Shown: positions 41,148-58,747 of the stretch, piece after piece
Numbering within the stretch: position 1 is the stretch's first letter
How the letters are laid out: every line of letters begins with the position of its first letter
Assembly (NCBI GenBank): GCA_017991315.1
Contig: JAGOQS010000002.1
Coordinates: 434,001 to 498,000, forward strand
Reading direction: 5' to 3'
Source: Ferrovibrio sp.
Lineage (GTDB): Bacteria; Pseudomonadota; Alphaproteobacteria; Ferrovibrionales; Ferrovibrionaceae
Length of the DNA stretch: 64,000 nt
The notes under the pieces: model-generated
Seen by the model: only the letters and a program-made list of their open reading frames with translations
Databases searched by the model: none
What the model was told of the DNA's origin: nothing
Made by a program: the position numbers and the translations under genes

Positions 41148-42368
41148 TTATATCACGCCACGCTCGCGCAGACTTTTCAGCTTGCCGGCATCGAAACCAA
41201 GCTGCTCGGCCAGCACCTCGTCGGTATGCTCGCCCAGCAGCGGTGGGCCGCGGTCATAGGCCACCGGCGAATCCGACAGCCGCAGCGGGCTCGCCACGCT
41301 CGGCACGTGGCCCAAGCGGCTATGCGGCACATCACGGCGCAATTGCCGCGCCTGCACATGCGGATCGGCAAACACCTTATCCACGGTGTTGATCGGGCCG
41401 CAGGGCACGCCGCGCTTTTCCATCGCCAGGATCAGGTCGTCCATGCTGCGCTTGGCGGTCTCGGCGGCAATCAGCGGAATGAGTGCATCGCGGTTCACCA
41501 CCCGCGCGCCGGGCGACTTGAAGCGCTCATCCGAGGCCCATTCCGGGTGCCCTAGCTCGGCGGCAAGCTTGCCGAACTGGCCATCATTGCCCACCGCGAT
41601 GATCACGAAGCCATCGCTGGTGGGGAAGCTCTGATATGGCACCACGGTGGGATGGCCGTTGCCGAACCGCACCGGCGGCGTGCCACCGACGAGATAGAAC
41701 AAAGCCTGGTTGGCGAGCGTGCCGACCTGCACATCCAGCAAAGCCATGTCGAGATACTGCCCCCGGCCCGAGCGCGCCCGCTGGTGCAGCGCGCCGAGGA
41801 TGGCGATGGTGGAGTAAAGCCCGGTCATCACATCGGCCAAGGCCACGCCAGCCTTCTGTGGCCCACCACCCGGCAGGTCGTCGCGCTCGCCGGTGATGCT
41901 CATCAGGCCGCCCATGCCCTGGATCAGGAAATCGTAGCCGGCACGCGGCGCATAGGGGCCGGTCTGGCCGAAGCCGGTGATCGAGCAATAGACCAGGCGC
42001 GGGTTCAGTGCGCTGAGGCTCTCGTAATCGAGGCCGTATTTCTTCAGGCCGCCGAACTTGTAGTTCTCCACCAGCACATCGGCCTTGGCGGCCAGCGCGC
42101 GGATGATCTCCTGGCCCTCGGGTGTCGCCATGTCCACCGTCACCGAGCGCTTGCCGCGGTTGGCCGAGAGATAATAGGCGGCATCGCCCGGCTCTCCGGT
42201 TTCCGGGTCGGTGAGGAAGGGCGGGCCCCAGCGGCGGGTGTCGTCGCCCTCGCCGGGCTTTTCCACCTTGATCACCGTGGCGCCCAGATCGGCCAGATTC
42301 TGCGTCGCCCAGGGGCCGGCCAGCACCCGGCTCAGGTCCAGCACCACGATATCGTCCAGCGCCTGCAT
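41148..42368 (-). CDS. CaiB/BaiF family III CoA transferase
   Basis: A 406-aa family III CoA transferase. Conserved blocks: LDLSRVLAGPWATQNLADLGATVIKVEKPGEGDDTR, NRGKRSVTVDM, DVLVENYKFGG, and the region of the catalytic Asp in YLDMALLDVQVG. It moves CoA between an acyl-CoA donor and a carboxylic acid; the substrate is unknown. It is separate from the second copy at 61.2-62.4 kb. Confidence 0.92.
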   Translation of the reverse strand: MQALDDIVVLDLSRVLAGPWATQNLADLGATVIKVEKPGEGDDTRRWGPPFLTDPETGEPGDAAYYLSANRGKRSVTVDMATPEGQEIIRALAAKADVLVENYKFGGLKKYGLDYESLSALNPRLVYCSITGFGQTGPYAPRAGYDFLIQGMGGLMSITGERDDLPGGGPQKAGVALADVMTGLYSTIAILGALHQRARSGRGQYLDMALLDVQVGTLANQALFYLVGGTPPVRFGNGHPTVVPYQSFPTSDGFVIIAVGNDGQFGKLAAELGHPEWASDERFKSPGARVVNRDALIPLIAAETAKRSMDDLILAMEKRGVPCGPINTVDKVFADPHVQARQLRRDVPHSRLGHVPSVASPLRLSDSPVAYDRGPPLLGEHTDEVLAEQLGFDAGKLKSLRERGVI

Positions 42369-42553
42369 TTACCCCGTCTCTCCCTGTCCCTAGCGGCCTG
42401 CCAAGGCCTTGATTCCAGGGGCCGATCCTAGCCGGAAACGGGGTGCAGCTTAACCCCCGGACAAGCCTTGCGGGGGCGGGTGGCTTACGTTAAGGTCCGC
42501 GCCGCTTTCGACCCCGTCCGGCCACCCAGCCGGACCCAGTAGGTCCCCCTTGC

Positions 42554-42643
42554 GGAGAGGTGCCAGAGTGGTCGATCGGGGCGGTCTCGAAAACCGTTGA
42601 GCGTGCAAGCGTTCCGTGGGTTCGAATCCCACCCTCTCCGCCA
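42554..42643 (+). tRNA. tRNA-Ser (anticodon CGA)
   Basis: A 90-nt class II tRNA. The acceptor stem GGAGAGG pairs with CCTCTCC, CCA is encoded, the anticodon loop CTCGAAA gives CGA (reads UCG), a long variable arm GAGCGTGCAAGCGTTC is present, and the T-arm is GTGGGTTCGAATCCCAC. Confidence 0.97.
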
Positions 42644-42743
42644 TCCATTCCCACAGCGCATTGAATTATTTGGATTTTCGACAATCCATCAACACAAGCA
42701 GTGCCCTGCTGGCAAATAACAGCGGTATCAGTATTTCTGGTGC

Positions 42744-45700
42744 TTAGAATTGTTGCGGTCTGCCCGGCCCGTCCAGGGTCAACTCGATCAGGCCGAAGAA
42801 AAAGCTCTCTTTCTTGTAGATGCCCGCTTTCCTCAATAAATGCGGCATGAAGCCCATCGCGACGGCATCGTCATAACTGACGTCCGCAGTCGCCAATGCG
42901 CTGTACATCGAGTTGTAACTTGGGAAAAGCTGCGACATCTCACTGACGTTAAGCTTCAGCGGCAGCAAGAACTTCATCAGGTTGTTCTCCGGCCCCTTAT
43001 CTGGCCGCATGATTCGGCCGAGATCGGCAGAGAATTCACTGATCTGCTTCAATGTGATGCCCGAATCCAGGACTTGCTGGACGGAATAGCCGGCAGCAAG
43101 CACATCACCAACGGTGAAACCAGCCTTCAGCATCGCAGCCGGCGGGAAGCCGGCCGTGCGGATATCCTGCACCGGCCTCACCGCCAAGGCGGCATCGGCC
43201 TCCGGTACGCCGAGATTCATCAATGCCGCCTTGTCGAGGCCCGCCGCCGCCAGCTTCGGCGCCGAGACGCCTTGCTGCAACAAGTCCTTCGGGGTGAAAC
43301 CGAGAGCGCTCAACTGCGCCAGAGACACACCGTTCTGGAACAGACTGCCGGCCGTGTGGCCAACCGCCAGCAATGTCGGCAGGGAAATACCGTCCTTCAG
43401 CAACTGCGCCAGACTCGTACGGCTTTTAGGGCCGATGGCACCGACCGGCCAGCCAGCGGACTGCATGCCACTGGTTACTTCGGCCTGGGTGTAGCCAGCT
43501 TTGAGCATACTGGTAACGACCTCATCATAACGGGCCGCACTCTCGTAGGTACGCCGAAGGTTTAGGTATAGATAATCGTAGGCGGGCACATTGGCCGCTT
43601 TGAGATCCGGTAGCGGATAGCCAGCGCCGACGATGTCTTGAATGTGATACCCCGCGTCGCGCAGTAATGTCGCGGGAGCACCATTCGCCCGCATTTCGTC
43701 AGCGGGATAGCCAGCCTTCGCCACGACCGAAATATCAGCGCCCGCCTTGATCAGGTCGCTGGCGGAATAACCAGCCTGCGTGCGCAATTCGCTGAGCGGA
43801 AAGCCTGCTGCCAGCAGGTCGCTCAGACTGTAACCCGCATTCCGCAGATCAGCAGAATTGTAGCCTGCATTGCGCAGGTCGGAAGATGAGTAATCCAGCC
43901 CTTTGAGGGTCTTGGCATCAACACCGGCTGCCCGCTGCTCTTTCGGGGTATAGCCGTTGGCCTTCAACATGGCGCTGTCGAATCCGGCCGCCAGCACTTC
44001 CTTGGCTGAATAGCCAGCGCCTCTCAATTCAGCCGCAGGATAGCTACCCTTAAGGAAGTCCGAAACGCCATAGCCGGCCTTGCGGATATCTCCAGCAGGA
44101 TAGCCACCGAGCCGCAGGTCGCTCAGGCTATATCCGCCCGCCGCCATCTCGGACACAGTCAGGCCGATTGCGCGCTGATCCTGCACCGGTATGCCATTGG
44201 CCTTGAAGTCCTTCGGGCCATAGCCAGCGCCGCGGGTTTCCGCCAGGGGATAGCCCGCCTGCAGCAACTCCTTCAGATCGGCGCCCGCTCCCCTCACTTC
44301 GGCAGCGGAATAACCGACGCCGCGCAAATCGCTGTAGCTGGCACCAACCATCACCAGGTCTCTCGCCGGATAGCCACCGCTGCGCAAATCACCGAATGAA
44401 TAACCGAGCGGCGCCACTTCCGTGATCGGGAAGCGCGCCTTGCGGAAATCGCTTGCCTCGAATCCCTGATCTTTCAGCGATTGCGGCGTTAGGCCTGCCG
44501 CCTTCAACTCGTCGGCATACTTCACCCCAGGGCCGATGGCATAGCGGTTTGTCCTCAGGATATCGGCGACGCTGGTCAGCCCCAGATCCAGCATTTCTGC
44601 AACAGGGAAGGCAAACTGAAGCAACTGCTTCTGCTCTTGCGTGATTGTTTCCGGCGTAACACCACGCAGGAACAGGATCGCATTGGCCCCCGGCAGCATC
44701 CACAGGTCATCGAAGCTGTAGCCGCTGCGCCACAATGTGCCTACGGAATAACCGGCTTGGATGATCTGGTTGCGGTCGTAGCCAAAACTCGCCAGGTCAG
44801 CAACGGAGTAGCCGGCATTGCGTAATTCGCTAGCCGGCGCCCCCATTTTACGCAGATCTTCAGGGCTGAATCCGGCAGCCAGCAACGCTGCTGTATTGCG
44901 CCCGGCTTGCTGCAAATCCCCATAGCTGAAATTCAATGCCTTCAAGGTTGAAAGGTCATATCCGGCATCGAGCAAGTCACGTGCGCTATAGCCAGCCTGT
45001 TTCAAATCGGCCGGGCCATAGCCCGCCGATGCCAGTTGGCCGATGCTATATCCCTGGCGGCGCAAATCCGTGGCTGAATAGCCGGCGCCGCGCAAATCCT
45101 GCAGCGGGAAACCCGCCTTTACCAGATCACCGAGAGGATAGCCGGCGCTGCGAAGCTGAACGATATCAAGACCGGCGGTGCGCAATTCGCTTGCAGGGTA
45201 GCCCGAGCGCCGCAGTTCGGTGGCGGTGAATTGCGATTCCAGAAGCTCTGCCAGTGGGAAGCCGGCGGCTTTGAGCTCGGCGAGCGGAACGCCAACGGAT
45301 TTCAGTTCCGATGCTGTGTAGCCAATATTGCGCAACTCCGGGGTGCCAAAACCGATTTGCCGTAACGTCTGCAGCGGCGTGCCGGTATCGCGCAATTCGG
45401 TCACATCATAGCCGGCCTGCTTCAAACTGGCCGGATCGAAGCCCTCGCTTTTCAGATCAGCAGCGGAAAAGCCGGAGCGTTTCAGTTCAGAGGGGGGGTA
45501 GCCCAGGGCGAGGAGTTCGCGCGCCTTGAAGCCAATATCATGCAGAGCGGCCGCATTATAACCGGCCTGCTGGAAATAACGGCCAGGCAAACCAGCAAAA
45601 TGCAACTCGCTGTCGGTCAGGTCGAGCGATTGTCTCAGGTCTGCAAGCGAGTAGCCGGCATCAAGCAATTGCGCGGAGGAATAGCCCTGTTGAGCCAACT

Positions 45701-48700
45701 CTGCCGGCTCGTAGCCAGCCTGGCGCAAATCGGCGAGCGGATAGCCAGCGGCCAGCAAGTCTGCCAGGGGATAGCCATTCGCCTTCAGGGTGGTGAGCGG
45801 GATGCCATCTGCCTTCAGGTCAGACAGCGAATAACCGGCGGCATTCAGGTCTTTGATATTATACCCGGCAGCCAGCATGTCATTGATGCTGTATCCGGCT
45901 TCCCTGATAAAGACCGGGGAATAGCGCCCCTCCCTGATTTCAGCCAGGGGAATTCCGGCGGCGCGCAAATCCTCGACGGTATAGCCGGCGGAACGCAGAT
46001 TGCTGATCGTGTAACCAAACTCAAGCGCAATCAGCGGCGACTGGCCCAAGGCCAGCAAGTCGGAGAGCCTGGGGCGGCCATCATCCGGCAGCGACAGCGA
46101 AGCCACCTGTACAGCGTTGCCAACGTCCCGGCTGATCGAGGCGCTATCGGTAGAAGCCTGAGTACGCCGCGCCTGGTCGGCTACGGAATCGCTCGAGCTT
46201 GACCCACCGCCGCCGCCCAGATTGCCGACATCCGTGCCGGCAATGGTATAGGTGAAGCCGTTACCGCTGGCCGGGACATTCGAGCAATTGGTGGTCGGGA
46301 AATTCGAGCAGCTATAGCGCTCAAAGCCGGTCAACGCGCCGCGCGTGTCATTCGCCGGATTGACCGAACGGATCAGCCAGCGCCCGTTGGTCGCATCGAC
46401 CGTGCCACCGTTATTGATGAAGCTGGCGCCAGCAAGCGTGATCGCGGTGCCCGTGGCAGTGCTGCTGATGGCGGCGCCATTATCTAATGTGATGGCGCCG
46501 CTGCTCATGATCCGCACTGGCGTAGTGAAAGCCGACAGCGTGCCGCCGATGGTGACGGGGCCATTGGACATGCCGCCAATATTCAGCAAGGTGGAGGTCT
46601 GGAACCGACTCAGCACCGCATCGCTGATGCTCAGCAATCCGGCGCCGGTGCCAATGCCGATGCTGCCGGGGAAGGTGGACGGATAAATCGTCGCCTGCGT
46701 GCTTGCCGTCGCCGTCGTGGTGCTGCTGACAGCGAGGCTGTTGGCGCTGATATTGACGTTTGCGGCCTTCAGCGTCACGGTTCTGGTCGAGTCGAGCTGA
46801 ACATCGCTGGCGGTCAAATTGACATAGTTGGTGGTCGGGCTGCTGCTGACGCCATCCCAACCCAGCGCGACTGTGGCGCTGCCATTCGGCGTCGAGAACC
46901 CGATCTTGCCGCCCGTGGCGGTCAGGCCGATGCCGCCACTGCTGGAATAGATCGCGGTCTGCTGGGTGCCGCCATCGAAGGAAATGCCATAGGCCGGATT
47001 GGTGCTGGTGGTGGCCTGCGTGCCCGTGATGGTAATGGCCTGCGTGGTGGTGGAAATCTCCACGCCACTGCCGATATTAATGCCGGAGCTGAAGCCATTT
47101 GGGCCACCCGTGCTATCGCCGCCGATACCGGTAAGCTGGATCTGGCCGCTGCCGCTGGTGGAAATCTGCGAGCCGCTGGCGATATCGATGCCGATGGACG
47201 TAGCAACGCCATCCGCGCCCTTGCCGCGCAGGTTCAACGAACCGCCACCGGCATTAATGATGCTGCCATTGATGAACAGGCCGCGGCCGCCATTGCTGCC
47301 GGCGACACCTTGCGCGGTGCTGGAGGTGCCACCGCCGGTCATGATCACGCCGCCGCCTCGGGTGATGATCGAGGAGTTGCTGCCGATATAAATGCCGCCG
47401 CTATTGCCGGCCTGGAATTGCACCGTCAGGGGGTTGCTGCCCGAGGTGGCGGCAATGGACGTATTGTTGGCTAAAGATATGCCACCATCGGCCCGCACGG
47501 TGAAGACGGTGTTGCCGGCTGTCACTGTCGGGGTGATGCTGGAATTTATGGACACATTACCGGTGCCTGAAACGCAGGAGGCATAGGCGCTGGGACAGCC
47601 GCTGGTGTTCAGCGTGACATTGGTGGTGGCCAGCGCCGTGCTAAGCGCGGCGGCGCCAGTAGAGCCAATCGTCAGATCATTCGGGTCCAGCAGCCATTCG
47701 CCAGCCCGGCCCCTGGCTGCGCTGGCATCGACTGCCGCGCCGGCACCAATATCCAGCAGGATGCCGGAGGTTTCGATAAAGCCGCCATCGCCCCCCTGGC
47801 TGCCACCACGAGCCAGCGCCCTGCCGCTGAAGCGGGTATCCTGGCTGAACAGGGTAATGCTGCCGCCATCACCATTCTGCCCTGCCGAGGCTGAGAGCAG
47901 GGTGCCGGCATTGACCGTGGTGGCGGATGTAGCCCAACTGCCGATTTCGATCTTGCCACCAGCACCCTGGCTACCATCGGCGGTGATGCTGGCATCGGTC
48001 AGTGTGATCGGGCCGTTGGCGCTGGCGGTCACCGTGCCGCCACTGGTACCGCTGGCGGAGACAGTGCCGCTGACATTCAGCGAGCCGCTGGCCTCCAGCA
48101 CGATCTCGCCGCCACGTTCCACCAGACTGTCGGCGCGGATGACGCCAGAGGTATTGATGGCGCTGCTGGTCAATGCATCCAGCGCCTTGGCGGTAAGGAT
48201 CACGCGGCCGCCTTCCGCCATCACCATGGCGCGGTTGTCGATCAGCGTCTGGATCGTCGCCGGCTCCACCTGCAGCAAGACATTCTGGCCGATCTGCATG
48301 ACCACGGTCTCGCCGGCGGCGAGCGCCACCGTGCCGAGGCGTGCCGAAATCAGGCCCTCGTTACGCAGTTCCGGCGCCAGCAGGGCGATATAGCCGCGAT
48401 CACTGGCGGTCAGGCTACCCTGGTTGATGATCTGCCCGGTGCTGCCATTACGCTGGAAGCGGTAATTGCCGGCCATGAAGTCGTCGTCGCGGATGCTCAT
48501 GGTCGACCCGACCAGACCACCGACATTGATCTGGGCATCGCGCCCGAACACGATACCGGATGGGTTGACCAGGAATACCTGGCCATTGGCGGTCAGCTTG
48601 CCGAGAATCTCCGAGACATTGCCGCCGGTAACGCGGTTGAGCGTCACGGCACTGCTGTTCGGCTGGTTGAAGTTCACCCAGGCCTGGCTGCCGATATTGA

Positions 48701-48893
48701 AGCTCTGCCAGTTGATGATGCCGCGCTGGCTGCTCTGCGTCACATCCATGCGGCTGCCGGATTGAGTGATCGTGGCGGCACCGGCGGCCACGCTGCCACC
48801 AGTCGGCAGTGTGGTCGGCTGCGTCTGGGCCTGCACCGTAGCTGAAGCCAGCAATGCCGTGGTGGCGAGGAGCCGGAGCGTGATATTTTGCAT
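42744..48893 (-). CDS. TpsA two-partner-secretion exoprotein with a giant decapeptide-repeat region
   Basis: A 2049-aa secreted protein. Residues 1-22 are a signal peptide ending VQA. Residues 30-290 are the TPS secretion domain with the hallmark VFLVNPSGIVFGRDAQINVG and GGRVILTAKAL. Residues 290-900 are Gly/Ser/Thr-rich, as expected for a filamentous-haemagglutinin-like beta-helix. From about residue 942 to 1952 the protein changes character to roughly 90 degenerate ten-residue units (consensus LxDLRxAGYS/P), interrupted near residues 1425-1455 and 1790-1830. The last 95 residues are unique. It lies 11 bp after its TpsB transporter. No toxin domain or immunity gene is seen, so it is not an obvious CdiA. 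An adhesin or matrix role is the default inference. Confidence 0.9.
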   Translation of the reverse strand: MQNITLRLLATTALLASATVQAQTQPTTLPTGGSVAAGAATITQSGSRMDVTQSSQRGIINWQSFNIGSQAWVNFNQPNSSAVTLNRVTGGNVSEILGKLTANGQVFLVNPSGIVFGRDAQINVGGLVGSTMSIRDDDFMAGNYRFQRNGSTGQIINQGSLTASDRGYIALLAPELRNEGLISARLGTVALAAGETVVMQIGQNVLLQVEPATIQTLIDNRAMVMAEGGRVILTAKALDALTSSAINTSGVIRADSLVERGGEIVLEASGSLNVSGTVSASGTSGGTVTASANGPITLTDASITADGSQGAGGKIEIGSWATSATTVNAGTLLSASAGQNGDGGSITLFSQDTRFSGRALARGGSQGGDGGFIETSGILLDIGAGAAVDASAARGRAGEWLLDPNDLTIGSTGAAALSTALATTNVTLNTSGCPSAYASCVSGTGNVSINSSITPTVTAGNTVFTVRADGGISLANNTSIAATSGSNPLTVQFQAGNSGGIYIGSNSSIITRGGGVIMTGGGTSSTAQGVAGSNGGRGLFINGSIINAGGGSLNLRGKGADGVATSIGIDIASGSQISTSGSGQIQLTGIGGDSTGGPNGFSSGINIGSGVEISTTTQAITITGTQATTSTNPAYGISFDGGTQQTAIYSSSGGIGLTATGGKIGFSTPNGSATVALGWDGVSSSPTTNYVNLTASDVQLDSTRTVTLKAANVNISANSLAVSSTTTATASTQATIYPSTFPGSIGIGTGAGLLSISDAVLSRFQTSTLLNIGGMSNGPVTIGGTLSAFTTPVRIMSSGAITLDNGAAISSTATGTAITLAGASFINNGGTVDATNGRWLIRSVNPANDTRGALTGFERYSCSNFPTTNCSNVPASGNGFTYTIAGTDVGNLGGGGGSSSSDSVADQARRTQASTDSASISRDVGNAVQVASLSLPDDGRPRLSDLLALGQSPLIALEFGYTISNLRSAGYTVEDLRAAGIPLAEIREGRYSPVFIREAGYSINDMLAAGYNIKDLNAAGYSLSDLKADGIPLTTLKANGYPLADLLAAGYPLADLRQAGYEPAELAQQGYSSAQLLDAGYSLADLRQSLDLTDSELHFAGLPGRYFQQAGYNAAALHDIGFKARELLALGYPPSELKRSGFSAADLKSEGFDPASLKQAGYDVTELRDTGTPLQTLRQIGFGTPELRNIGYTASELKSVGVPLAELKAAGFPLAELLESQFTATELRRSGYPASELRTAGLDIVQLRSAGYPLGDLVKAGFPLQDLRGAGYSATDLRRQGYSIGQLASAGYGPADLKQAGYSARDLLDAGYDLSTLKALNFSYGDLQQAGRNTAALLAAGFSPEDLRKMGAPASELRNAGYSVADLASFGYDRNQIIQAGYSVGTLWRSGYSFDDLWMLPGANAILFLRGVTPETITQEQKQLLQFAFPVAEMLDLGLTSVADILRTNRYAIGPGVKYADELKAAGLTPQSLKDQGFEASDFRKARFPITEVAPLGYSFGDLRSGGYPARDLVMVGASYSDLRGVGYSAAEVRGAGADLKELLQAGYPLAETRGAGYGPKDFKANGIPVQDQRAIGLTVSEMAAGGYSLSDLRLGGYPAGDIRKAGYGVSDFLKGSYPAAELRGAGYSAKEVLAAGFDSAMLKANGYTPKEQRAAGVDAKTLKGLDYSSSDLRNAGYNSADLRNAGYSLSDLLAAGFPLSELRTQAGYSASDLIKAGADISVVAKAGYPADEMRANGAPATLLRDAGYHIQDIVGAGYPLPDLKAANVPAYDYLYLNLRRTYESAARYDEVVTSMLKAGYTQAEVTSGMQSAGWPVGAIGPKSRTSLAQLLKDGISLPTLLAVGHTAGSLFQNGVSLAQLSALGFTPKDLLQQGVSAPKLAAAGLDKAALMNLGVPEADAALAVRPVQDIRTAGFPPAAMLKAGFTVGDVLAAGYSVQQVLDSGITLKQISEFSADLGRIMRPDKGPENNLMKFLLPLKLNVSEMSQLFPSYNSMYSALATADVSYDDAVAMGFMPHLLRKAGIYKKESFFFGLIELTLDGPGRPQQF
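43040..46070 (-). repeat. Coding array of about 90 decapeptide units in TpsA
   Basis: By manual alignment about 46 units run without much interruption, then about 33, then about 11. A unit is [S/P/T/D]-x-x-[D/E]-L-[R/K/L]-x-A-G-[Y/F], for example LADLRQAGYE and SADLRNAGYS. Leu at position 4-5 and Gly at 9 are best kept. On DNA the units share only short words such as GCCGGCTAT, so the array is old or selected at protein level rather than freshly amplified. Confidence 0.85.
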
Positions 48894-48904
48894 CGCCCCC
48901 TCCC

Positions 48905-50611
48905 CTAGAACTGCAACACGGCCTGAATCCAGGCACGGTAGCGGTTTTTCTCACCATCGCTGTCATTGCCCGAGGCATCATGGCCGGCATTGCGGCCGAT
49001 CACTTTGGCCAGCGTGGTGGTGATGGTGAGGGCCTGGATCGGGGTCCAGGCCAAGGCGATGCCGAAGCCCTGGATGGCATAATTGTTCGGCATGTCGCTG
49101 CGCGGCTGCCAGTTGATCCAGGGATCGGTATGCTGGCGCACAAAGCCAAGATCGTAGAAGCCGGAAAGCTTCAGTTCATCGCCGATCTTCCGGTGCAGCT
49201 CAAGCGCCAGTCGCCCGCCGCTGTCGCCGCTGCCCTCGCCGCTGGGATAGGCGCGCACGCGGTCGATACCGCCAAGCGAAAACTTCTCCGAACTGTCCAG
49301 GTTGTTGCCGGAAGTCTGCGCTTCCAGCGTGGTGATAAGGGTCCAGTCATCGTCCAGCTTCTGTTCGCGTGTCGCGCTGGCCGCCAGCTTGGCATAGAAG
49401 CCTGCCGTGCCGGCGGTGACACGATCATTGGCGGCGGTGCTGGGCGAGCGATCGAGATTAAGATGGCCCACCGTGCCGGTCAGCGACAGGCTGTTGTTGC
49501 CGCCGCCGAACCAGTCATCCACCACCGTTGCCGAAAGCCCCAGCGAGGCGCTGTTGATCCGCTTGTCGTTCAAGGTCGCGCTGACGGCACGATCCTGCAT
49601 CATCTTGAAGTCGTAGGCGCTCGAAAGCGTCAGCGACAATTCATTGCCTCGCAGCAGTGGGTACGTGGCGTTGCCACCGGCGCTGACGCTGTAGCCATTC
49701 AGCCCCAGATTGGCGAAACGGCCGCCAACCTCGTATTCCAGGGCCGAGCCATTGATGCCTAACACCAGGCCGGAATAGCCCACCGGCACCGCCATCGCGA
49801 GCCGGCCATAGCGCGTGCCTTCGCTGGCCAGGGCCACCGCCGAGTATTTCTCGCCGGCGCCGAACGGGTTCTCCACTGAGAGCGTCGCCAGCCCACTCAC
49901 CACGCCGGTACTCTCCGAGCCGCCATTGTCGAGCGTCGCCGAACCACTGAACAGCGGCTTGTCCTCCAGCAGCAGGATGGCGTCGGTCTCGCCCTCCTTC
50001 TCGCCGGCCCGCAGCGAGGCCTCCGCCTTCACGCCCGGCACATCCTTCAACACCGCGATGGCCTCGTCCATGATGCCAAGGTCCAGCGTCTCGCCCGGCT
50101 TTAGCCGGTGTTCGATAATGCCGGTCGCCAGATTTTTATCGAGCCTGCTCTTGCTGGCCGGATCGACCTTCACCTTGCCGAGCTTGCCCTGCATCACCAC
50201 GATTTCGACCACGCCATCGCGGATTGTCTGCGGCGGCAGATAGGCATGCGCCAGCTTGCCCTTCTTGCGGCTGTAGTCACTCAGCTTGCGCGCCGCCGCC
50301 TGCAGTTCCGAAAAGCTCAGGCGTTTGCCGGTATAGCCCTGCAGCAGAGGCGCCAGTTCCTCCGCCGGAATGCCATCCGACTTGATGCGGAATTCCTTCA
50401 CATAGACGGTCTGGCCCTTCTTCTCGGGCAAAGGCTGTTCTGGCGGCGGCTGTGTCATCGGCGCCAAAGGCGCCGGCGCCGGCTGGCTCCGGCCCGTTGC
50501 GCGCTCCGTCTCACGCAGAATGCTGCCGGCATCCTGAGCCGCAACCGGCATGGAAATAGCGCAGGCAAGCAGCAGGGCTGACATGCGTGCGATGCCGGTC
50601 ACAACATGCAT
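48905..50611 (-). CDS. TpsB outer-membrane transporter (ShlB/FhaC/HecB family)
   Basis: A 568-aa Omp85-superfamily pore that exports the adjacent TpsA. A signal peptide (MSALLLACAISMPVAAQ) is followed by a Pro-rich linker, a POTRA domain (YVKEFRIKSDGIPAEELAPLLQGYTGKRLSF and IRDGVVEIVVMQGKLG), and a beta-barrel with SVENPFGAGEKYS near residue 250 and a C-terminal aromatic ending VLQF. The start at 50611 is taken because it gives a complete signal peptide; ATG at 50584 is also possible. Upstream DNA carries an inverted repeat and direct repeats. Confidence 0.9.
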   Translation of the reverse strand: MHVVTGIARMSALLLACAISMPVAAQDAGSILRETERATGRSQPAPAPLAPMTQPPPEQPLPEKKGQTVYVKEFRIKSDGIPAEELAPLLQGYTGKRLSFSELQAAARKLSDYSRKKGKLAHAYLPPQTIRDGVVEIVVMQGKLGKVKVDPASKSRLDKNLATGIIEHRLKPGETLDLGIMDEAIAVLKDVPGVKAEASLRAGEKEGETDAILLLEDKPLFSGSATLDNGGSESTGVVSGLATLSVENPFGAGEKYSAVALASEGTRYGRLAMAVPVGYSGLVLGINGSALEYEVGGRFANLGLNGYSVSAGGNATYPLLRGNELSLTLSSAYDFKMMQDRAVSATLNDKRINSASLGLSATVVDDWFGGGNNSLSLTGTVGHLNLDRSPSTAANDRVTAGTAGFYAKLAASATREQKLDDDWTLITTLEAQTSGNNLDSSEKFSLGGIDRVRAYPSGEGSGDSGGRLALELHRKIGDELKLSGFYDLGFVRQHTDPWINWQPRSDMPNNYAIQGFGIALAWTPIQALTITTTLAKVIGRNAGHDASGNDSDGEKNRYRAWIQAVLQF

Positions 50612-50614
50612 TTT

Positions 50615-50638
50615 ACAGGCGTCAATCCACACGCCTGT
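50615..50638 (-). promoter_or_regulatory. Inverted repeat over the tpsB translation start region
   Basis: ACAGGCGT-N8-ACGCCTGT (perfect 8-bp arms) ends three bases before the tpsB ATG at 50611, where the ribosome-binding site should be; no separate Shine-Dalgarno is evident. As RNA it would form a hairpin at the initiation region; as DNA it could be an operator. Confidence 0.5.
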
Positions 50639-50736
50639 TAGGGCATAAATTATACGTAAACCCACAGGAACGCTCGACTATTGGCCAATGGAACCGGGCC
50701 AAGCTAGCGCCGAGCATTTGCCAGCATCAACAATTC

Positions 50737-50766
50737 AATTCTTGTGGATTCTTTCAGAATCTTTCA
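50737..50766 (-). promoter_or_regulatory. Ten-base direct repeats, candidate response-regulator site
   Basis: On the minus strand TGAAAGATTC (50766-50757) is followed directly by TGAAAGAATC (50756-50747), then the weaker CACAAGAATT (50746-50737). A 10-bp direct-repeat period is what OmpR/PhoB-type dimers bind. The array lies about 125-155 bp upstream of tpsB, just past the stop of the regulator gene. Confidence 0.5.
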
Positions 50767-50787
50767 TGGCGAATTTGGCGTGTATTT

Positions 50788-51486
50788 TCAGCGCTCAATC
50801 CGGCACGGCGCGCTAAATATATAACCCTGGCCATATATCATTTTGATCGGCGGCTCGACCTCTACAGCCTGTCGTATTTTGCGCCGAAGGCGGTTAACGA
50901 CCGTATCCAGATTACGTATGTCGGCAGCCGCTTGTGGCCGGATAATGGCCTGCGCCAGCCAATCCCTGGAACAGGGCTGGCCGACGCGCTCGAAAAGAGC
51001 GGTGAGAAAAGACAATTCCGTGGCCGTCAACTTAATCGTCTTGCCACTGGGCGCAGCCAGGTGCCAATCCACAGCGTTAAGGCGCCAAGGCCCAGCTTCA
51101 TGGACCGCTGCCTTCCCCGCATTCGGCAGACGCCGCAGCAGGCTTTGCACGCCAGCGCGGATTTCCTGCAAAGAAGCCGGCTTGACCAAATATATATCGG
51201 CGCCGCTGTCAAAGCCTGTCGTGCGGTCTTCGCTGTCACCCAGCGCGGTCAGCATGATCACGCCGCAATCGCAGCGGCGGCGGATATCCCGCGCCATATC
51301 GAAGCCGCTGCCATCAGGCAGGCCGATATCAAGTATTATGACATCGGGAGGAGACCCTGCCTCCAGCTCTTCATTCATCTCCTGGCAGCTTGCCACCCCC
51401 TTGCTGGCATAACCCAGCAGGGAGAGATACTCGACGAGATCCCGTCGTAAAGCCGGTTCATCTTCAACGATCAAGATTCGGTTCAT
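50788..51486 (-). CDS. OmpR-family response regulator
   Basis: A 232-aa two-component regulator. The receiver domain has the acidic pair Glu8/Asp9 (VEDEPAL), phospho-acceptor Asp53 (ILDIGLPDG), Thr80 and Lys102. A C-terminal winged-helix DNA-binding domain follows (LTATELSFLTALF, TVVNRLRRKI, IYGQGYIF). Its start overlaps the kinase stop by four bases. Located directly upstream of tpsBA on the same strand, it is the likely regulator of that pair. Confidence 0.93.
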   Translation of the reverse strand: MNRILIVEDEPALRRDLVEYLSLLGYASKGVASCQEMNEELEAGSPPDVIILDIGLPDGSGFDMARDIRRRCDCGVIMLTALGDSEDRTTGFDSGADIYLVKPASLQEIRAGVQSLLRRLPNAGKAAVHEAGPWRLNAVDWHLAAPSGKTIKLTATELSFLTALFERVGQPCSRDWLAQAIIRPQAAADIRNLDTVVNRLRRKIRQAVEVEPPIKMIYGQGYIFSAPCRIER

Positions 51487-52931
51487 GCCGACACAGCAGC
51501 GTTGTTCAATGGTATGCCGGGTAAGGGCAAGTATATTGCCGCTATCGTTCCCCGGCCCGGTGCAGGCCGCAGGATAAGCCGCCCGTTATGAAAATCCAGC
51601 AATCTCCGGGTATTGTAAAGGCCAAGGCCGGTGCCGGTGGCCGCCGTGGTGTTCGATGCACGGAAAAATCGGCTGCCAATCGAGGAGACCTCCTCCTCTG
51701 GTATACCGATGCCATAATCACGGACCGACAGAACAATCTCATCCGCCTGCCGTAACACCGTCACCTCTACTGCAGTGTCATCCGGTGAATACTTGAACGC
51801 GTTATCGATCAAATTGATCAGGGCGGTAGCAAGCATCTGAGGATCGCCGATATACCGGGGCAGTCCCTCCGCAAGATAAAAGCGGAGCCGGCCGGCATCA
51901 TCCCATCCCTGAAAATGCTGCTGCATTCTGGAAACCAGGTCAGGCAACGCCAATTCCTCCGGCTGCGCCGCATCCCTTTCGCGCCGGTCTGCAGCCAGAA
52001 AACGCTCTGTAAAGCGGACAAGGCGCAATACAGCACCATGAATGGTCTCTACACGCTGGGTAACCGCCGGCAGCGACTTTTCAGTGACCACGTCGATCAT
52101 CTCGGCAGCGCGATCAATAATGCTCAAGGGGGTGCGGAATTCATGCGTTACCATGCGCAGCAATTGGCGCTGCTCCTTGCGTGCGGCCTTCTCCGCCGCC
52201 AGGGCTTTTGCGGCAGTTTCCTGAAGCTGCTTGCGTTCTTCGACCTCGCGCGACAGGGCAATATTACGCGCATGCAAGTCGGCCTGCAGGCGATATCCCA
52301 CCATGCCCAGGATGACCAGAAACAGGCAGCTGGTAACAAAATGGAAAAAGAAATAGTACCAGCCCTGAAGAATTGATTCGTATGTCCCGCTGCCCCAATA
52401 CATCAACCGGATGGTGATGATGCTGCGCAAGCAAAGAGCGCAGAATTGTATGGTTATCACCCCCAGGCCGATCCATCGGATCAGGCGCGGCTGGCTGCTG
52501 TCACGCCACAGAATTGCGAATATGGCCCCCGCTATCAGCATCCCGAGGGCATTGCTTGCAAGCACGCGCAGCCCGACATTACTTGGATCGACCAGCATGA
52601 TGACCGGCCAGAATATGGCGGCAAAGGCGACGCAGCCGAGCAGAAAGCGGGGATAACCCGATTGCTTCAACAGTCTGCCGAGGCCGTACACGATCAAGGC
52701 ACTGGCTACCGTAATAATAACATTGTGGGCAATGATATTGAGGCTCATATAATCTTTAAAAATGCCGCGAAAAATCAGCAACAGCATGGCAATGCCGTAG
52801 CAGATAAAACCGGCTGCAAAATACTTGAGGATGTGCAGTTGGCGCTGCGTCAGCCAGACCACCAGAAACACGCAGCCCTGCAACAACAGGGTAAGCGTGA
52901 TCATCAGAATACTTGTGGTGATATCGAGCAT
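51483..52931 (-). CDS. Membrane histidine kinase with multi-TM sensor
   Basis: A 482-aa sensor kinase. About seven hydrophobic helices fill residues 8-212 (for example 8-27, 36-55, 68-86, 96-114, 121-142, 190-212) with little periplasmic sequence, so it may sense a membrane or lipophilic signal. A coiled coil (EVEERKQLQETAAKALAAEKAA) leads to the dimerisation/phospho-His motif RMVTHEFRTPLS (His263), N-box INLIDNAFKYS, and G-boxes DYGIGIPEEE and GTGLGLYNTRRLL. Transcribed with the regulator. Base composition is AT-richer than in surrounding genes. Confidence 0.93.
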   Translation of the reverse strand: MLDITTSILMITLTLLLQGCVFLVVWLTQRQLHILKYFAAGFICYGIAMLLLIFRGIFKDYMSLNIIAHNVIITVASALIVYGLGRLLKQSGYPRFLLGCVAFAAIFWPVIMLVDPSNVGLRVLASNALGMLIAGAIFAILWRDSSQPRLIRWIGLGVITIQFCALCLRSIITIRLMYWGSGTYESILQGWYYFFFHFVTSCLFLVILGMVGYRLQADLHARNIALSREVEERKQLQETAAKALAAEKAARKEQRQLLRMVTHEFRTPLSIIDRAAEMIDVVTEKSLPAVTQRVETIHGAVLRLVRFTERFLAADRRERDAAQPEELALPDLVSRMQQHFQGWDDAGRLRFYLAEGLPRYIGDPQMLATALINLIDNAFKYSPDDTAVEVTVLRQADEIVLSVRDYGIGIPEEEVSSIGSRFFRASNTTAATGTGLGLYNTRRLLDFHNGRLILRPAPGRGTIAAIYLPLPGIPLNNAAVSA

Positions 52932-52984
52932 GACCCGACCCGCTCGCTCAAATGACTGGGGTCGGCAACAATAGCCTGCAGCCT

Positions 52985-53030
52985 GCCCCCTGAATGATCT
53001 TCGGGTAACATTAGTTTACAGTCAGGGGGC
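52985..53030. promoter_or_regulatory. Inverted repeat upstream of the histidine kinase
   Basis: GCCCCCTGA (52985-52993) and TCAGGGGGC (53022-53030) are perfect 9-bp inverted arms 28 bp apart, in the gap between the kinase start and the BKACE gene. The AT-rich core could hold the kinase promoter. Confidence 0.4.
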
Positions 53031-53054
53031 TCGGCAATGGCGGCACAAACCGCA

Positions 53055-53081
53055 CACCCCGCCGGTATTCCCGGCGGGGTG
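53055..53081 (-). terminator. Hairpin downstream of the BKACE gene
   Basis: CACCCCGCCGG / CCGGCGGGGTG form an 11-bp stem with a 5-nt loop, 37 bp past the BKACE stop on the minus strand. The following sequence has few T's, so it may need Rho or act mainly to stabilise the 3' end. Confidence 0.6.
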
Positions 53082-53117
53082 CATGACAGGCATAGCAGAT
53101 TGGGCGTTCTATTCCGC

Positions 53118-53945
53118 TTAAGCTGGCCGCAGCCCCAGGATCCGGCGGGCCTCATCCGGCGTGGCCGGGCGACGGCCATACTCGGCGCAGAGGCCGGCGA
53201 CGCGGGCGACCAGTTCGGCGTTGCTGGCGGCCAAGCGGGTGTTATCGAAGCGGATATTGTCCTCGAGCCCGGTGCGGCAATGGCCACCCATTTCGAGTGC
53301 CCAATGGTTCACTTCGAGCTGGTGGCGGCCAAGGCCGGCGGCGGTCCAAGTCGCTTCCGGCATCAGCTTGCGTAGCTGCGCCACCTCGAATTCCAGGATC
53401 TCGCGCCGTGCCGGCAGGGCATTCTTCACGCCCATGACGAACTGTACATGTGCCGGTCCCGGGATCAGCCCCTCGCGCACCAGATCGGCGGCGTTGTAGA
53501 GCATCGCCAGATCGAACACCTCAACCTCCGGCTTGACCTCGTAATCCTTCATGGTCTGTGCCAGGCCCTTGATGAAGTCCGGCGGGTTCTCATTCACGAA
53601 GGTGGGAAAGTTGACTGAGCCCGTGGCGAGCGAGGCCATGTCGGGGCGAAATTTCAGCATGCCGCCGCGCTCTTCCAGCTTGCGCCCGCGCGCGCCGGTG
53701 GAGAATTGCACGATCATGCCGGGGCAATGCTTCTCCACGCCTTCCTGCACGGCATGGAAGCGATCCGGATCGGAAGACGAGGACTCATCGTCGTTGCGCA
53801 CATGGATATGTACCAGCGAGGCACCGGCCTCGTAGCATTCATGGGTCGACTCGACCTGTTCGGCGACCGTGACCGGCACCGCCGGCGTGTCCTTCTTGCG
53901 CGGTACCGAGCCGGTGATGGCAACAGTGATGATGCAGGCTTCCAT
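53118..53945 (-). CDS. BKACE-family beta-keto acid cleavage enzyme (Kce-like)
   Basis: A 275-aa TIM-barrel, zinc-dependent enzyme of the 3-keto-5-aminohexanoate cleavage family, which splits a beta-keto acid with acetyl-CoA into acetoacetate and a new acyl-CoA. Typical features: GASLVHIHVRNDDE (metal His pair HIH), MIVQFSTGARGR, ATGSVNFPTFVNENPP, and GGHCRTGLEDNIRF near the C-terminus. Start at ATG 53945 behind AGGGTGG. It ends the catabolic cluster. The substrate of an individual BKACE cannot be told without the specificity residues being modelled. Confidence 0.9.
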   Translation of the reverse strand: MEACIITVAITGSVPRKKDTPAVPVTVAEQVESTHECYEAGASLVHIHVRNDDESSSSDPDRFHAVQEGVEKHCPGMIVQFSTGARGRKLEERGGMLKFRPDMASLATGSVNFPTFVNENPPDFIKGLAQTMKDYEVKPEVEVFDLAMLYNAADLVREGLIPGPAHVQFVMGVKNALPARREILEFEVAQLRKLMPEATWTAAGLGRHQLEVNHWALEMGGHCRTGLEDNIRFDNTRLAASNAELVARVAGLCAEYGRRPATPDEARRILGLRPA

Positions 53946-53991
53946 GTTTCCCACCCTAACTTTGTCGTTATGCGATTACTTTTGCGACCAA

Positions 53992-55557
53992 TTACTTCTG
54001 GGACTCGCCGTAGCCGCCGCCGCCGCCGGTTTCGATCAGCACGGTATCGCCGGGCTGCAGCACCAGTTGCCCTGTCGGCTCGCGCTGCTTGCCATTGATG
54101 GCAAAGGAGGCCGCTGCCCCATCCTCGCCACCGAACAGGCCCGGCGCCGGCCGCTTGATGCGGTTGACCATGAAGGAGGAGATCGCCATGCCCTCGCCGC
54201 GCATACGGAAGGCGAAGCGGATGCCATCGCCACCATTCTTCTCGCCGCGCCCGCCGGAGCCGTGGCGGATTTCGCGGCACAGCACTTCCATCGGCGCCTG
54301 GCTTTCCAGCACCTCGATCGGCGTGTTGGAAAGATTGCTCGGGAAACTGATCGCCGACAGGCCGTTATGACGCGCACTGGCGCCGGCACCAGCGCCGAGG
54401 AAGCCGGAAACGGAATAGCGCCGGGTGCCGCCAAGCCCCGCCACCTGCATGTTGTTGGACGGTGAGCCGGGCGTCGCCTGCACGCGGTCCGGCAGTGCCT
54501 GCGCCATGGCGCCCATGATCGCGGGCGGCAGCAGATGGCCGATCATGCCGCGCGCACCGCAGGGCGCGGGCCGCGTCGGATTCAGGATCGAACCGGCTGG
54601 CGCGGTGATGCGGATCGGCACGAAGCTGCCTTCGTTATTCGGAATCCACGGCGCGAACAGGGCTTTTAGCGCATAGGCACTGTAGGCATAGGTGTAGTTC
54701 ATCACCGTATTGATAGCGAGATTCACCTGGCCGCTGGAGCCGGTGTAATCCACCAGCACCTCATCGCCGGAAACCGTAACCTTGCAGGCAATGGTGATGA
54801 CGCCGCCCGGCATTTCCGCTGGGCCGTCATTCTCCACGGTATACTCGTAAACACCATCCGGCGTAGCGCGGATGGCATCGCGCATCGCGGTTTCGGTGCG
54901 CTGGCAGACCTCGTCGGTCAAGCGCTCGAAGTCAATACCGGTCTCGTCGATCAGGGCGGAAAGCAGTTCGCCCAGCGACGTGCAGCAGGACACTTGAGCC
55001 CAGATGTCGCCCATAGTCTCATCCGGCAGGCGCACATTGGTCTGGATCATTTCCACCAGCACATCATTCTGCACACCGGCCTGCAGGATGCGCATCGGCG
55101 GAATCTGCAGGCCTTCCTCGAACAATTCGCGGTTCGCCGGATTGCGCAGGCGGCCGCCGATATCGGGCAGATGACTGACCACGCCGGCGAAGCCGACAAT
55201 TTCGCCCTTGTGGAAAATCGGCATCACCAGGGTGGCATCGTTCAGATGTCCGGTGGCAAGCCAGGGATCATTGGTTATATAGGCATCGCCATCCTGCATC
55301 GTCTCGATGCCAAACTTGGCGATGAAGCTGCGAATGGTTGCGGGCAAGGTCGAGATGAAGGACGGGATGCTCTGGGAGGACTGCACCACATTGCGGCCGC
55401 GCCGGTCGGTGAGCACCACGGCATAGTCGTTGGCTTCGCGCACCAGGGTGGAGAAGGATGTGCGCACAAAGGTCGCCGCCGCCTCGTCCACCATGCTGAT
55501 CAGGCGGGTCCAGAGGATTTCCAGCGTGATCGGATCGATGCCCTGCTTGTCCTGCAT
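53992..55557 (-). CDS. Hydantoinase B / oxoprolinase family subunit
   Basis: A 521-aa HyuB-type subunit of an ATP-dependent cyclic amide hydrolase or related carboxylase. Conserved: DPITLEILWTRLISMVDE, DAYITNDPWLATGHLND, and the Gly-rich end IETGGGGGYGE. It starts within the stop of hyuA (TGATG), so the two subunits are made together. Family members include 5-oxoprolinase, N-methylhydantoinase, caprolactamase and acetophenone carboxylase. Confidence 0.9.
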   Translation of the reverse strand: MQDKQGIDPITLEILWTRLISMVDEAAATFVRTSFSTLVREANDYAVVLTDRRGRNVVQSSQSIPSFISTLPATIRSFIAKFGIETMQDGDAYITNDPWLATGHLNDATLVMPIFHKGEIVGFAGVVSHLPDIGGRLRNPANRELFEEGLQIPPMRILQAGVQNDVLVEMIQTNVRLPDETMGDIWAQVSCCTSLGELLSALIDETGIDFERLTDEVCQRTETAMRDAIRATPDGVYEYTVENDGPAEMPGGVITIACKVTVSGDEVLVDYTGSSGQVNLAINTVMNYTYAYSAYALKALFAPWIPNNEGSFVPIRITAPAGSILNPTRPAPCGARGMIGHLLPPAIMGAMAQALPDRVQATPGSPSNNMQVAGLGGTRRYSVSGFLGAGAGASARHNGLSAISFPSNLSNTPIEVLESQAPMEVLCREIRHGSGGRGEKNGGDGIRFAFRMRGEGMAISSFMVNRIKRPAPGLFGGEDGAAASFAINGKQREPTGQLVLQPGDTVLIETGGGGGYGESQK

Positions 55558-57659: not shown

Positions 57660-58747
57660 GTGCTTGCCCTCATAACCATGGCCGCGGCAGCCTTCAGGCT
57701 GTCCAGCAATGCCGGCGAAACAGGTATGCCATGGCGGCTGCGTTCGGCATACATCGTAGCGGCGCGCTGGCCCGGCAGGCGCGGAGCCGCGTTGGCGGCA
57801 GGCTGGCTCTGCTGGATGCGGCCAGCCACCGCTTCCACTGCCTGTAGCGCAGCGGCACGGCCGCTGAAATGCCCGGCATCGATGGCGATGAAGCAATGAC
57901 TGGTGCCGCTCGGCTCCGGCCCCGGGTCATGCGGATTGCGCACCAGGAAACCCGGACGACCGCCGGCCAGGCCAGCGCAGAGCAGTTCGATGGCCAAAGC
58001 CAGGGCATAGCCCTTGGCCCCACCCATCGGCTGAATTGTGCCGTGTAATGCGGCTTCGGCATCGGTGGTCGGCACACCATCGGCATCCAGCGCCCAGTCG
58101 GCAGGGATCGCAGCCTTGGCCTGTGCTGCCTTGCGGATACGGCCACGCGCCACCACGCTGGTCGCCATGTCGATCACGATGGGCGGCTGGCCATCGCGTG
58201 GGAAAGCGAAAGCCAGCGGATTGGTGCCGAGTATCGCCTCACGCCCGCCCCAGGGCGCCATGGTCGGCGCCGCATTGGACAACACAATACCGATCATGCC
58301 TTGCTTCGCCGCCATCTCGGCAAAGTAGTTCGCCGCGCCGAAATGGCTGGAATTGCGCACCGCGCAGGAACCGATGCCCTGGCCCGTCGCCAGGCGCAAA
58401 GCCTCGGTCATCGCCTTCTGCGCCGCCAGCACGCCGAAGCCGTTGCCGGCATCCAGCACGCTCGCCGCTGGACCTGCCTGGCTCAGTACCATCGCTGCAT
58501 CGGGCTTGATCGAACGCTCGCAGAGCCGCCGCACATAGACCGGCAGATGGGCCAGGCCATGGGAATCGATGCCCTGAAGCTGGGCCTGCACCAGAATGGC
58601 GGCGGCAGTCGCGGCATCGGTAGTGGCAAGCCCGGCGGCAGCCAGAATGTCTGCCGCCAGCGCCTGCAACATTGCCGCCGGCGTAGCCTCGCCCGCCTTC
58701 AGGCTTTCGAGCCGGGTTGCCAGGTCCTGCATGCTCAGGTCCTGCAT
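57656..58747 (-). CDS. Ldh-family (malate/L-sulfolactate type) NAD(P)-dependent dehydrogenase
   Basis: A 363-aa type-2 malate/lactate dehydrogenase family protein. It has QLQGIDSHGLAHLPVYVRRL with the catalytic His, NSSHFGAANYFAEMAA, and IGIVLSNAAPTMAPWGG. Relatives reduce 2-keto acids, ureidoglycolate, cyclic imines (piperideine- or pyrroline-2-carboxylate) or diketogulonate. The start is ambiguous because a 15-bp duplication created two equivalent ATGs (58747 and 58732). It follows the aminotransferase gene after two bases. Confidence 0.9.
   Translation of the reverse strand: MQDLSMQDLATRLESLKAGEATPAAMLQALAADILAAAGLATTDAATAAAILVQAQLQGIDSHGLAHLPVYVRRLCERSIKPDAAMVLSQAGPAASVLDAGNGFGVLAAQKAMTEALRLATGQGIGSCAVRNSSHFGAANYFAEMAAKQGMIGIVLSNAAPTMAPWGGREAILGTNPLAFAFPRDGQPPIVIDMATSVVARGRIRKAAQAKAAIPADWALDADGVPTTDAEAALHGTIQPMGGAKGYALALAIELLCAGLAGGRPGFLVRNPHDPGPEPSGTSHCFIAIDAGHFSGRAAALQAVEAVAGRIQQSQPAANAAPRLPGQRAATMYAERSRHGIPVSPALLDSLKAAAAMVMRAST

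What the first reader, a model, noticed from the sequence alone, without database searches (positions are those of the whole stretch)
42744..48893. TpsA exoprotein whose C-terminal half is about 90 decapeptide repeats
Seen: a normal TPS N-terminus and beta-helix-like region, then about 1000 residues of ten-residue units (LxDLRxAGYS/P). Ser/Pro/Asp at the start and Gly-aromatic at the end of each unit look like helix N- and C-caps, so the array may form an alpha-solenoid of very short helices joined to a beta-helix. Known TpsA proteins usually carry beta-helix repeats or C-terminal toxins; I do not know of this combination being described. It may be a new class of surface fibre or ligand-binding scaffold.
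Basis: partly seen in the sequence, partly recalled or inferred. Interest (0 to 1): 0.82.

Follow-up and report, generated by a model that had tools for sequence, protein, structure and literature searches.

The report
Exported fibre of ninety tiny helices
This bacterial gene encodes a two-partner-secretion protein whose second half is about ninety copies of a ten-residue unit known from the Legionella DotG secretion channel; the copies are predicted to fold into a rod of very short helices, a shape our searches matched to no solved structure, and the protein would likely be exported as a surface fibre.

The parts
42744..48893 (-). tpsA-type gene, 2049 aa: TPS domain, EtpA-like half, decapeptide array, C-terminal tail
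48060..48809 (-). TPS secretion domain, residues 29-278, with NPSGI motif at residue 110
   Evidence: PF05860 E 3.6e-39; motif
46194..48053 (-). EtpA-like region, residues 281-900 (beta-helix by homology up to about residue 744)
   Evidence: phmmer to EtpA 8vba residues 13-744 E 7e-68; not modelled here
46074..46193 (-). Gly/Ser-rich linker, residues 901-940
   Evidence: sequence
42822..46073 (-). decapeptide array, 90 parsed units, residues 941-2024, with short islands
   Evidence: PF25296 679 bits; unit parse
44691..46073 (-). first and longest block of units, residues 941-1401, 44 parsed units
44721..45470 (-). 25 units (residues 1142-1391) predicted as 25 six-residue helices
   Evidence: AlphaFold2 mean pLDDT 96.4, pTM 0.80
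43590..44522 (-). second large block of units, residues 1458-1768, 30 parsed units
42747..43058 (-). C-terminal tail, residues 1946-2049, two weak units at 2005-2024, low model confidence
48905..50665 (-). tpsB: ShlB-type outer-membrane transporter with POTRA_2, ends 11 bp before tpsA
   Evidence: PF03865 E 2e-20, PF08479 E 1.4e-9; gap
50788..51486 (-). OmpR-type response regulator
   Evidence: PF00072, PF00486; same gene beside the ortholog in L028
51483..52931 (-). histidine kinase of the same two-component system
   Evidence: PF02518, PF00512
42554..42643 (+). tRNA-Ser(cga) directly downstream of tpsA
   Evidence: ARAGORN

Best explanation
This is a TpsA exoprotein whose second half is about 90 DotG-type decapeptide repeats (PF25296) that are predicted to fold, one short helix per ten residues, into an alpha-solenoid, and it would likely be exported through the adjacent TpsB as a two-part surface or secreted fibre. 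Shown by sequence: the TPS domain, the EtpA-like half, the array, and the neighbouring tpsB and two-component genes. Predicted: six-residue helices at unit positions 3-8, capped by Ser/Thr/Asp/Pro before and Gly after. Inferred from established TPS biology (recalled): the chain leaves N-terminus first and unfolded, the N-terminal half folds as a beta-helix, and the decapeptide units then fold outside one after another, so that the array is a long rod carrying a surface of variable positions (probably unit positions 4, 7 and 8). Its likely role is adhesion to cells or surfaces, or a place in the biofilm matrix, probably switched by the adjacent two-component system; none of this is tested.
For: TPS and TpsB domains; EtpA homology; PF25296 at 679 bits and DotG repeats at E 4.8e-78. 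AlphaFold2 of the whole C-terminal half (9-row alignment) shows helices and no strand of 3 or more residues; 59 of 112 ten-residue blocks have mean pLDDT 80 or more. 25 units with an in-phase 20-row alignment give mean pLDDT 96.4, pTM 0.80, 25 helices, no strand. Support that does not come from the model: 41 of 44 prolines in the 90 units fall at positions 2-4, and 46 of 90 units have a capping box; over 138 of 141 proteins (6085 units, the window's protein among them) 970 of 1043 prolines fall at positions 2-4. Lag-5 identity is absent (0.064), whereas one pentapeptide protein run as a positive control gives 0.516. AlphaFold2's published bias with perfect repeats is towards beta-solenoids (PMC11795689, abstract and passages), so an alpha result runs against it. 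dN/dS is 0.044 over the array within the species (5 nonsynonymous, 39 synonymous changes). The kinase-regulator-tpsB-tpsA order is kept in a second Ferrovibrio species.
Against: No experiment shows secretion, helicity or adhesion. The pTM of the full C-terminal model is only 0.32, so the overall shape is unknown, and about residues 1026-1145, the islands and the tail have lower confidence. A review and a paper describe the same repeat in DotG as a likely beta-helix or as penta-peptide repeats (PMC6362355, PMC7511231, passages). PF13599 Pentapeptide_4 matches weakly here (17 bits, cut-off 38) and above its cut-off in P0010 and P0137 (42 and 56 bits); the NCBIfam pentapeptide models HetL and Alr5209 match below cut-off, and designed pentapeptide proteins match by sequence (E 2.9e-5 to 8e-4). 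The C-terminal part is not conserved in the second species, which could also fit a delivery role.
Confidence: 0.62

Rival explanations
1. The array is a pentapeptide-type right-handed beta-helix, two pentapeptides per unit, so that the whole TpsA is one continuous beta-helical fibre.
For: The same repeat in DotG is described as likely beta-helix / penta-peptide repeats (PMC6362355 and PMC7511231, passages). The unit can be read as two A(D/N)LXX-like pentapeptides (consensus recalled); PF13599, two NCBIfam pentapeptide models and designed pentapeptide proteins match weakly, and PF13599 exceeds its cut-off in P0010 and P0137. A beta-helix is usual for TpsA.
Against: No lag-5 periodicity (0.064 against 0.285 at lag 10), while one real pentapeptide protein gives 0.516. 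Proline and cap statistics fit a helix. Two AlphaFold2 runs give helices only, against AlphaFold2's published beta bias.
Confidence: 0.1
2. It is a contact-dependent or toxin-delivering TpsA: the repeats are a long stalk and the variable C-terminus is an effector that is swapped between strains.
For: The C-terminal part is replaced in the second Ferrovibrio species while the TPS domain is 90% and the next 620 residues 82% identical; domain exchange at the 3' end of tpsA is reported for Neisseria (PMC3848433, search listing only). P0137 has a Ntox33 match below its cut-off (22.3 bits, cut-off 28.4), lying inside its repeats.
Against: No VENN/VDNN motif in the window's protein or the ortholog; no toxin family among the Pfam matches at E <= 1 of the window's protein or at E <= 0.001 of L028, P0010 and P0065. 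The 375 bp downstream hold a tRNA-Ser, and the ORFs of 30 aa or more on the tpsA strand there overlap it, so no immunity-gene candidate is seen. What stands in L028 instead includes further decapeptide units.
Confidence: 0.12
3. The array is a ligand- or peptide-binding scaffold rather than a mechanical fibre: the exposed unit positions form a code-like binding surface, as in other alpha-solenoids.
For: About 90 units differ from each other at positions 4, 7 and 8 yet are nearly frozen within the species (dN/dS 0.044), as expected if the individual surface residues matter.
Against: No binding partner is known; no binding test was possible; strong constraint could also come from folding. Between the two species the first ten units do change at surface positions (for instance 6 of 10 at position 7).
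Confidence: 0.3

Closest known systems
DotG/IcmE of the Legionella Dot/Icm type IVB secretion system (repeat region, PF25296)
   Same: The decapeptide unit, in sequence and phase: the IcmE chains 9ngw/7muc match residues 1045-1375 and 1136-1365 (E 4.8e-78); NCBIfam DotG model 781 bits.
   Different: No VirB10/TrbI domain (PF03743) in this protein and none in the genomes G143 and G006; here the repeats follow a TPS and EtpA-like half. The DotG repeats are said in print to be likely beta-helical (PMC6362355, passage).
EtpA-like TpsA exoproteins (two-partner secretion, type Vb)
   Same: TPS domain and about 700 residues of the N-terminal half align with EtpA (E 7e-68); adjacent TpsB.
   Different: The C-terminal half is a decapeptide array; EtpA's alignment ends at residue 744.
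TPS + decapeptide proteins from metagenomes (P0010, P0065, P0137) and the Ferrovibrio sp. ACE_PRO18 ortholog (L028)
   Same: TPS domain in front, PF25296 array behind.
   Different: The metagenome proteins carry MBG (P0010 also YDG) domains, and two of them an ESPR signal; in the tree of the TPS domain they do not group with the Ferrovibrio pair.
HEAT/ARM/TPR-type alpha-solenoids (repeat lengths recalled)
   Same: A stack of helices giving an extended solenoid (predicted).

Membership tests
TpsA (two-partner secretion exoprotein) | N-terminal TPS domain with NPNGI-type motif | tested here: met
   PF05860 135.6 bits, cut-off 33.5; NPSGI at residue 110 (motif recalled)
TpsA (two-partner secretion exoprotein) | Cognate TpsB (POTRA + ShlB barrel) beside it | tested here: met
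   PF03865 and PF08479 in 48905-50665, 11 bp upstream
TpsA (two-partner secretion exoprotein) | Beta-helix after the TPS domain | tested here: inconclusive
   Sequence homology to solved EtpA up to residue 744; this half was not modelled
TpsA (two-partner secretion exoprotein) | Secretion through TpsB | not testable with these tools
   needs an export assay
Decapeptide repeat family PF25296 | Score above the curated cut-off | tested here: met
   679.2 bits, cut-off 45, 15 stretches
DotG/IcmE (T4BSS channel protein) | C-terminal VirB10/TrbI domain PF03743 | tested here: not met
   absent from the Pfam scan at E <= 1, although the NCBIfam DotG model passes its cut-off on the repeats (781 against 750)
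DotG/IcmE (T4BSS channel protein) | A VirB10-type T4SS in the genome | tested here: not met
   PF03743: 0 of 2 Ferrovibrio genomes searched (G143, same species; G006), found in 2 of 14 control genomes; the window's own incomplete assembly was not searched
Pentapeptide repeat (PF00805/PF13599) | Five-residue periodicity | tested here: not met
   lag-5 identity 0.064 against 0.516 in one pentapeptide control
Pentapeptide repeat (PF00805/PF13599) | Beta-helical fold | tested here: inconclusive
   AlphaFold2 gives helices, but a prediction does not settle it
CdiA/BcpA contact-dependent inhibition | VENN-type border, C-terminal toxin, immunity gene | tested here: not met
   (some BcpA-type proteins lack VENN, recalled)
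Known alpha-solenoid with a solved structure | Structural match | tested here: inconclusive

The most novel reading that the evidence does not exclude
The decapeptide repeat is a new class of solenoid, an alpha-solenoid with a single six-residue helix per ten residues and the shortest unit of its kind, used by cells in two settings: in the periplasmic stalk of DotG, where the beta-helix assumption is wrong, and as exported TPS surface fibres whose C-terminal arrays are exchanged between species.
Probability: 0.5. Interest if true: 0.8.

Novelty: new variant of a known kind. Interest (0 to 1): 0.6.

Why it matters
If right, a repeat that sits in the central channel protein of the Dot/Icm secretion machine, and that has been described as beta-helical, is really a very short-period alpha-solenoid. 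A version of it from an environmental bacterium would be a tractable object on which to solve that structure. It would also show that the TPS pathway can export large all-alpha arrays behind its usual beta-helix.

Tried and rejected

Assembly artefact or chance fusion: rejected. A second genome of the species (G143) has the gene without a gap in residues 951-2049 and with 99% or more identity in each stretch compared there, and Ferrovibrio sp. ACE_PRO18 has an ortholog.

Endogenous DotG as donor of the repeats: no PF03743 match in G143 or G006 (the window's own assembly not searched).

tRNA-borne genomic island: the four-gene cassette sits in different surroundings in the two species. Four of the six 2-kb steps from 42001 to 54000 have G+C 0.58-0.61, while 25 of the 26 other steps have 0.63-0.67 and one 0.56. 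The cassette abuts tRNA-Ser, but no second copy of the tRNA end was found in the window; left open.

Single origin of TPS + decapeptide: the tree of 19 rows needs two changes and the AU test weakly rejects one clade (p 0.03), with long branches and weak inner forks. Among the 15 loci only L028 shows an array, but some contigs end inside or soon after the gene, among them L029, the nearest row to the Ferrovibrio pair, which may carry an unseen array. Suggestive only.

Phage match: three Caulobacter phage records matched weakly. In the one looked at (RW) the match is antisense to an annotated pentapeptide gene, so it is spurious; that gene served as the pentapeptide control. The other two were not opened.

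Weak PF25296 matches in many relatives (62 of 143 genomes at E <= 0.001, own genome included, but only 3 of 143 above the cut-off: G000, G006, G018) were not pursued.

Papers: PMC7511231, PMC12857230, PMC8486379 and PMC6362355 were read as passages only; PMC11795689 as abstract and passages; PMC3848433 seen in a search listing only. Ghosal et al. 2019 and Yue et al. 2025 were not read; they are known to me here only as cited in those passages.
Full report
What is there. The minus-strand ORF 42744-48893 encodes 2049 residues. Residues 29-278 are a TPS secretion domain (PF05860, E 3.6e-39) with an NPSGI motif. Residues 13-744 align with EtpA, a solved TpsA (8vba, E 7e-68). After a Gly/Ser linker, residues 941-2024 hold 90 parsed ten-residue units. 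The gene starts 11 bp after a tpsB gene (48905-50665; ShlB and POTRA_2 domains), which is preceded on the same strand by an OmpR-type response regulator and a histidine kinase. The genus is taken to be Ferrovibrio: the genome G006, listed as same genus, has a contig of the same length and the same ORF as the record titled Ferrovibrio sp. ACE_PRO18 (L028).

The repeat is not chance. Residue identity at lag 10 in 951-1945 is 0.285, against 0.081 +/- 0.008 (maximum 0.107) in 1000 shuffles, and is 0.273, 0.254 and 0.251 at lags 20, 30 and 40. At DNA level the units have diverged (no TRF row in the gene; mean DNA identity between units 0.43), so the array looks old.

The repeat is a known family. 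Pfam calls it PF25296, Decapeptide repeat region (679.2 bits, cut-off 45, E 1.1e-209). By sequence it matches the repeats of DotG/IcmE of the Dot/Icm type IVB system (E 4.8e-78), so much so that the NCBIfam DotG equivalog passes its cut-off (781 against 750). The protein is nevertheless not DotG: it has no VirB10/TrbI domain, and the two Ferrovibrio genomes searched (G143 of the same species, 99% complete, and G006, 98%) hold no PF03743 match.

Alpha or beta. [quoted passage not shown] I tested this in three ways. First, periodicity: there is none at five residues (0.064), while one true pentapeptide protein gives 0.516. Second, proline and caps: 41 of 44 prolines in the 90 units sit at positions 2-4; 57 units have Ser/Thr/Asp/Asn/Gly and 25 Pro at position 2; 46 have a capping box; 79 have Gly at position 10. 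Over 138 of 141 proteins with at least 8 units (6085 units; the window's protein is one of the 141) 970 of 1043 prolines are at positions 2-4 (units were picked by anchors at positions 0, 1, 6 and 10, so those positions carry no information). Third, prediction: the whole C-terminal half with a 9-row alignment shows helices and no strands, with 59 of 112 ten-residue blocks at mean pLDDT 80 or more, lower values around residues 1026-1145, in the islands and in the tail, and overall pTM 0.32. 25 units with a 20-row, in-phase alignment give mean pLDDT 96.4, pTM 0.80, and 25 helices at unit positions 3-8 with no strand. AlphaFold2's published failing with perfect repeats is confident false beta-solenoids (PMC11795689, abstract and passages), so this result runs against the bias. 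Against it stand weak pentapeptide-family matches, which exceed the Pfam cut-off in P0010 and P0137.

Distribution. The homology search with the array gave 68 proteins at E <= 1e-10 among 7997 scored candidates (a capped set); 2 of 68 list a TPS domain (P0010, P0065) and 19 of 68 the VirB10/TrbI domain PF03743. A second search with the array of P0010 gave 204, of which the best 120 were listed; 2 of 120 list a TPS domain (P0010, P0137). Others combine the array with fn3, RCC1, EF-hand or PF03382 domains, or with membrane parts. Pfam confirms TPS + PF25296 in P0010, P0065, P0137 and the Ferrovibrio ortholog L028. In a sample of 398 genomes of the phylum only the window's own genome has a PF25296 match at E <= 1e-9; in the set of 143 relatives, own genome included, 3 exceed the cut-off: G000, G006 and G018 (G018's open frame is 282 aa and was not followed up). 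A close TpsB (82-100% identity) is present in 3 of 10 genomes of the genus (G000, G143, G006).

Evolution. Against a second genome of the species (G143) the array is colinear; dN/dS is 0.044 over residues 941-2024 (5 nonsynonymous, 39 synonymous), 0.073 in 281-900 (6 and 29) and 0.119 in the TPS domain (4 and 11). The array is thus under strong purifying selection; the differences between the regions rest on few changes. Against L028 the TPS domain is 90% (224 of 250) and the next 620 residues 82% identical (506 of 620); the first dozen units stay colinear (in 951-1090, 78 of 119 aligned residues identical and 21 gapped), with dN/dS 0.11 in 941-1064 at near-saturated dS. After about residue 1065 the L028 protein differs: other units, a proline-rich linker, a non-repeat stretch and a further short array (35 units after residue 930). 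The order kinase, regulator, tpsB, tpsA is kept, but the cassette stands in other surroundings. The TPS-domain tree suggests more than one fusion of TPS with decapeptides (two changes; AU p 0.03, weak).

How it probably works. From established TPS biology (recalled; not tested here): the TPS domain docks on the POTRA domains of TpsB and the unfolded chain passes the barrel. The EtpA-like half would fold as a beta-helix. The decapeptide units, each needing only its neighbours, would then fold outside as a helical rod. I commit to an exported two-part fibre that serves adhesion or the biofilm matrix, controlled by the adjacent two-component system; export, fold, control and role are all unproven. 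A toxin-delivery role is less likely: no VENN motif, toxin domain or immunity-gene candidate was found.

Literature. Searches for DotG with decapeptide repeat, IcmE/DotG with pentapeptide, two-partner secretion and TpsA with decapeptide, filamentous hemagglutinin with pentapeptide repeat, alpha-solenoid with 10-residue repeat, and a six-term search listed no paper whose title or abstract start is on TPS + decapeptide or on a helical DotG repeat; searches returned nothing, and of the 146 papers the 20 best were listed. The library is open-access only, so this is weak evidence of novelty.

Noticed in passing
G000:C3:523484-525902 (outside the window, same contig): A second tpsB-tpsA pair with a 4628-residue open frame for the TpsA, present in both genomes of the species.
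   Followed up: no
window 42744-48893; P0006, P0031, P0075: The NCBIfam DotG/IcmE equivalog passes its cut-off on a protein without VirB10 domain, and at least three database proteins named 'intracellular multiplication protein IcmE' list no PF03743: a likely source of wrong names.
   Followed up: partly
P0034, P0035, P0036, P0040, P0041, P0046: A group of probably eukaryotic membrane proteins (my reading of the sequences) with long decapeptide arrays, source organism not named.
   Followed up: no
P0017, P0021, P0023, P0042, P0076, P0128, P0130 and others: Decapeptide arrays joined to EF-hand domains, some clusters with more than 60 member sequences.
   Followed up: no
window 42554-42643: tRNA-Ser(cga) directly behind tpsA, on the opposite strand; also there in G143, but no tRNA in the 20-kb stretch around the ortholog in the second species.
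   Followed up: partly
L058 1243-2313 (Caulobacter phage RW): The antisense strand of a pentapeptide gene reads as decapeptide-like protein and gives a tblastn match to the array.
   Followed up: partly
window 53118-57896: BKACE and hydantoinase A/B genes next to the cassette, an ordinary catabolic neighbourhood.
   Followed up: no
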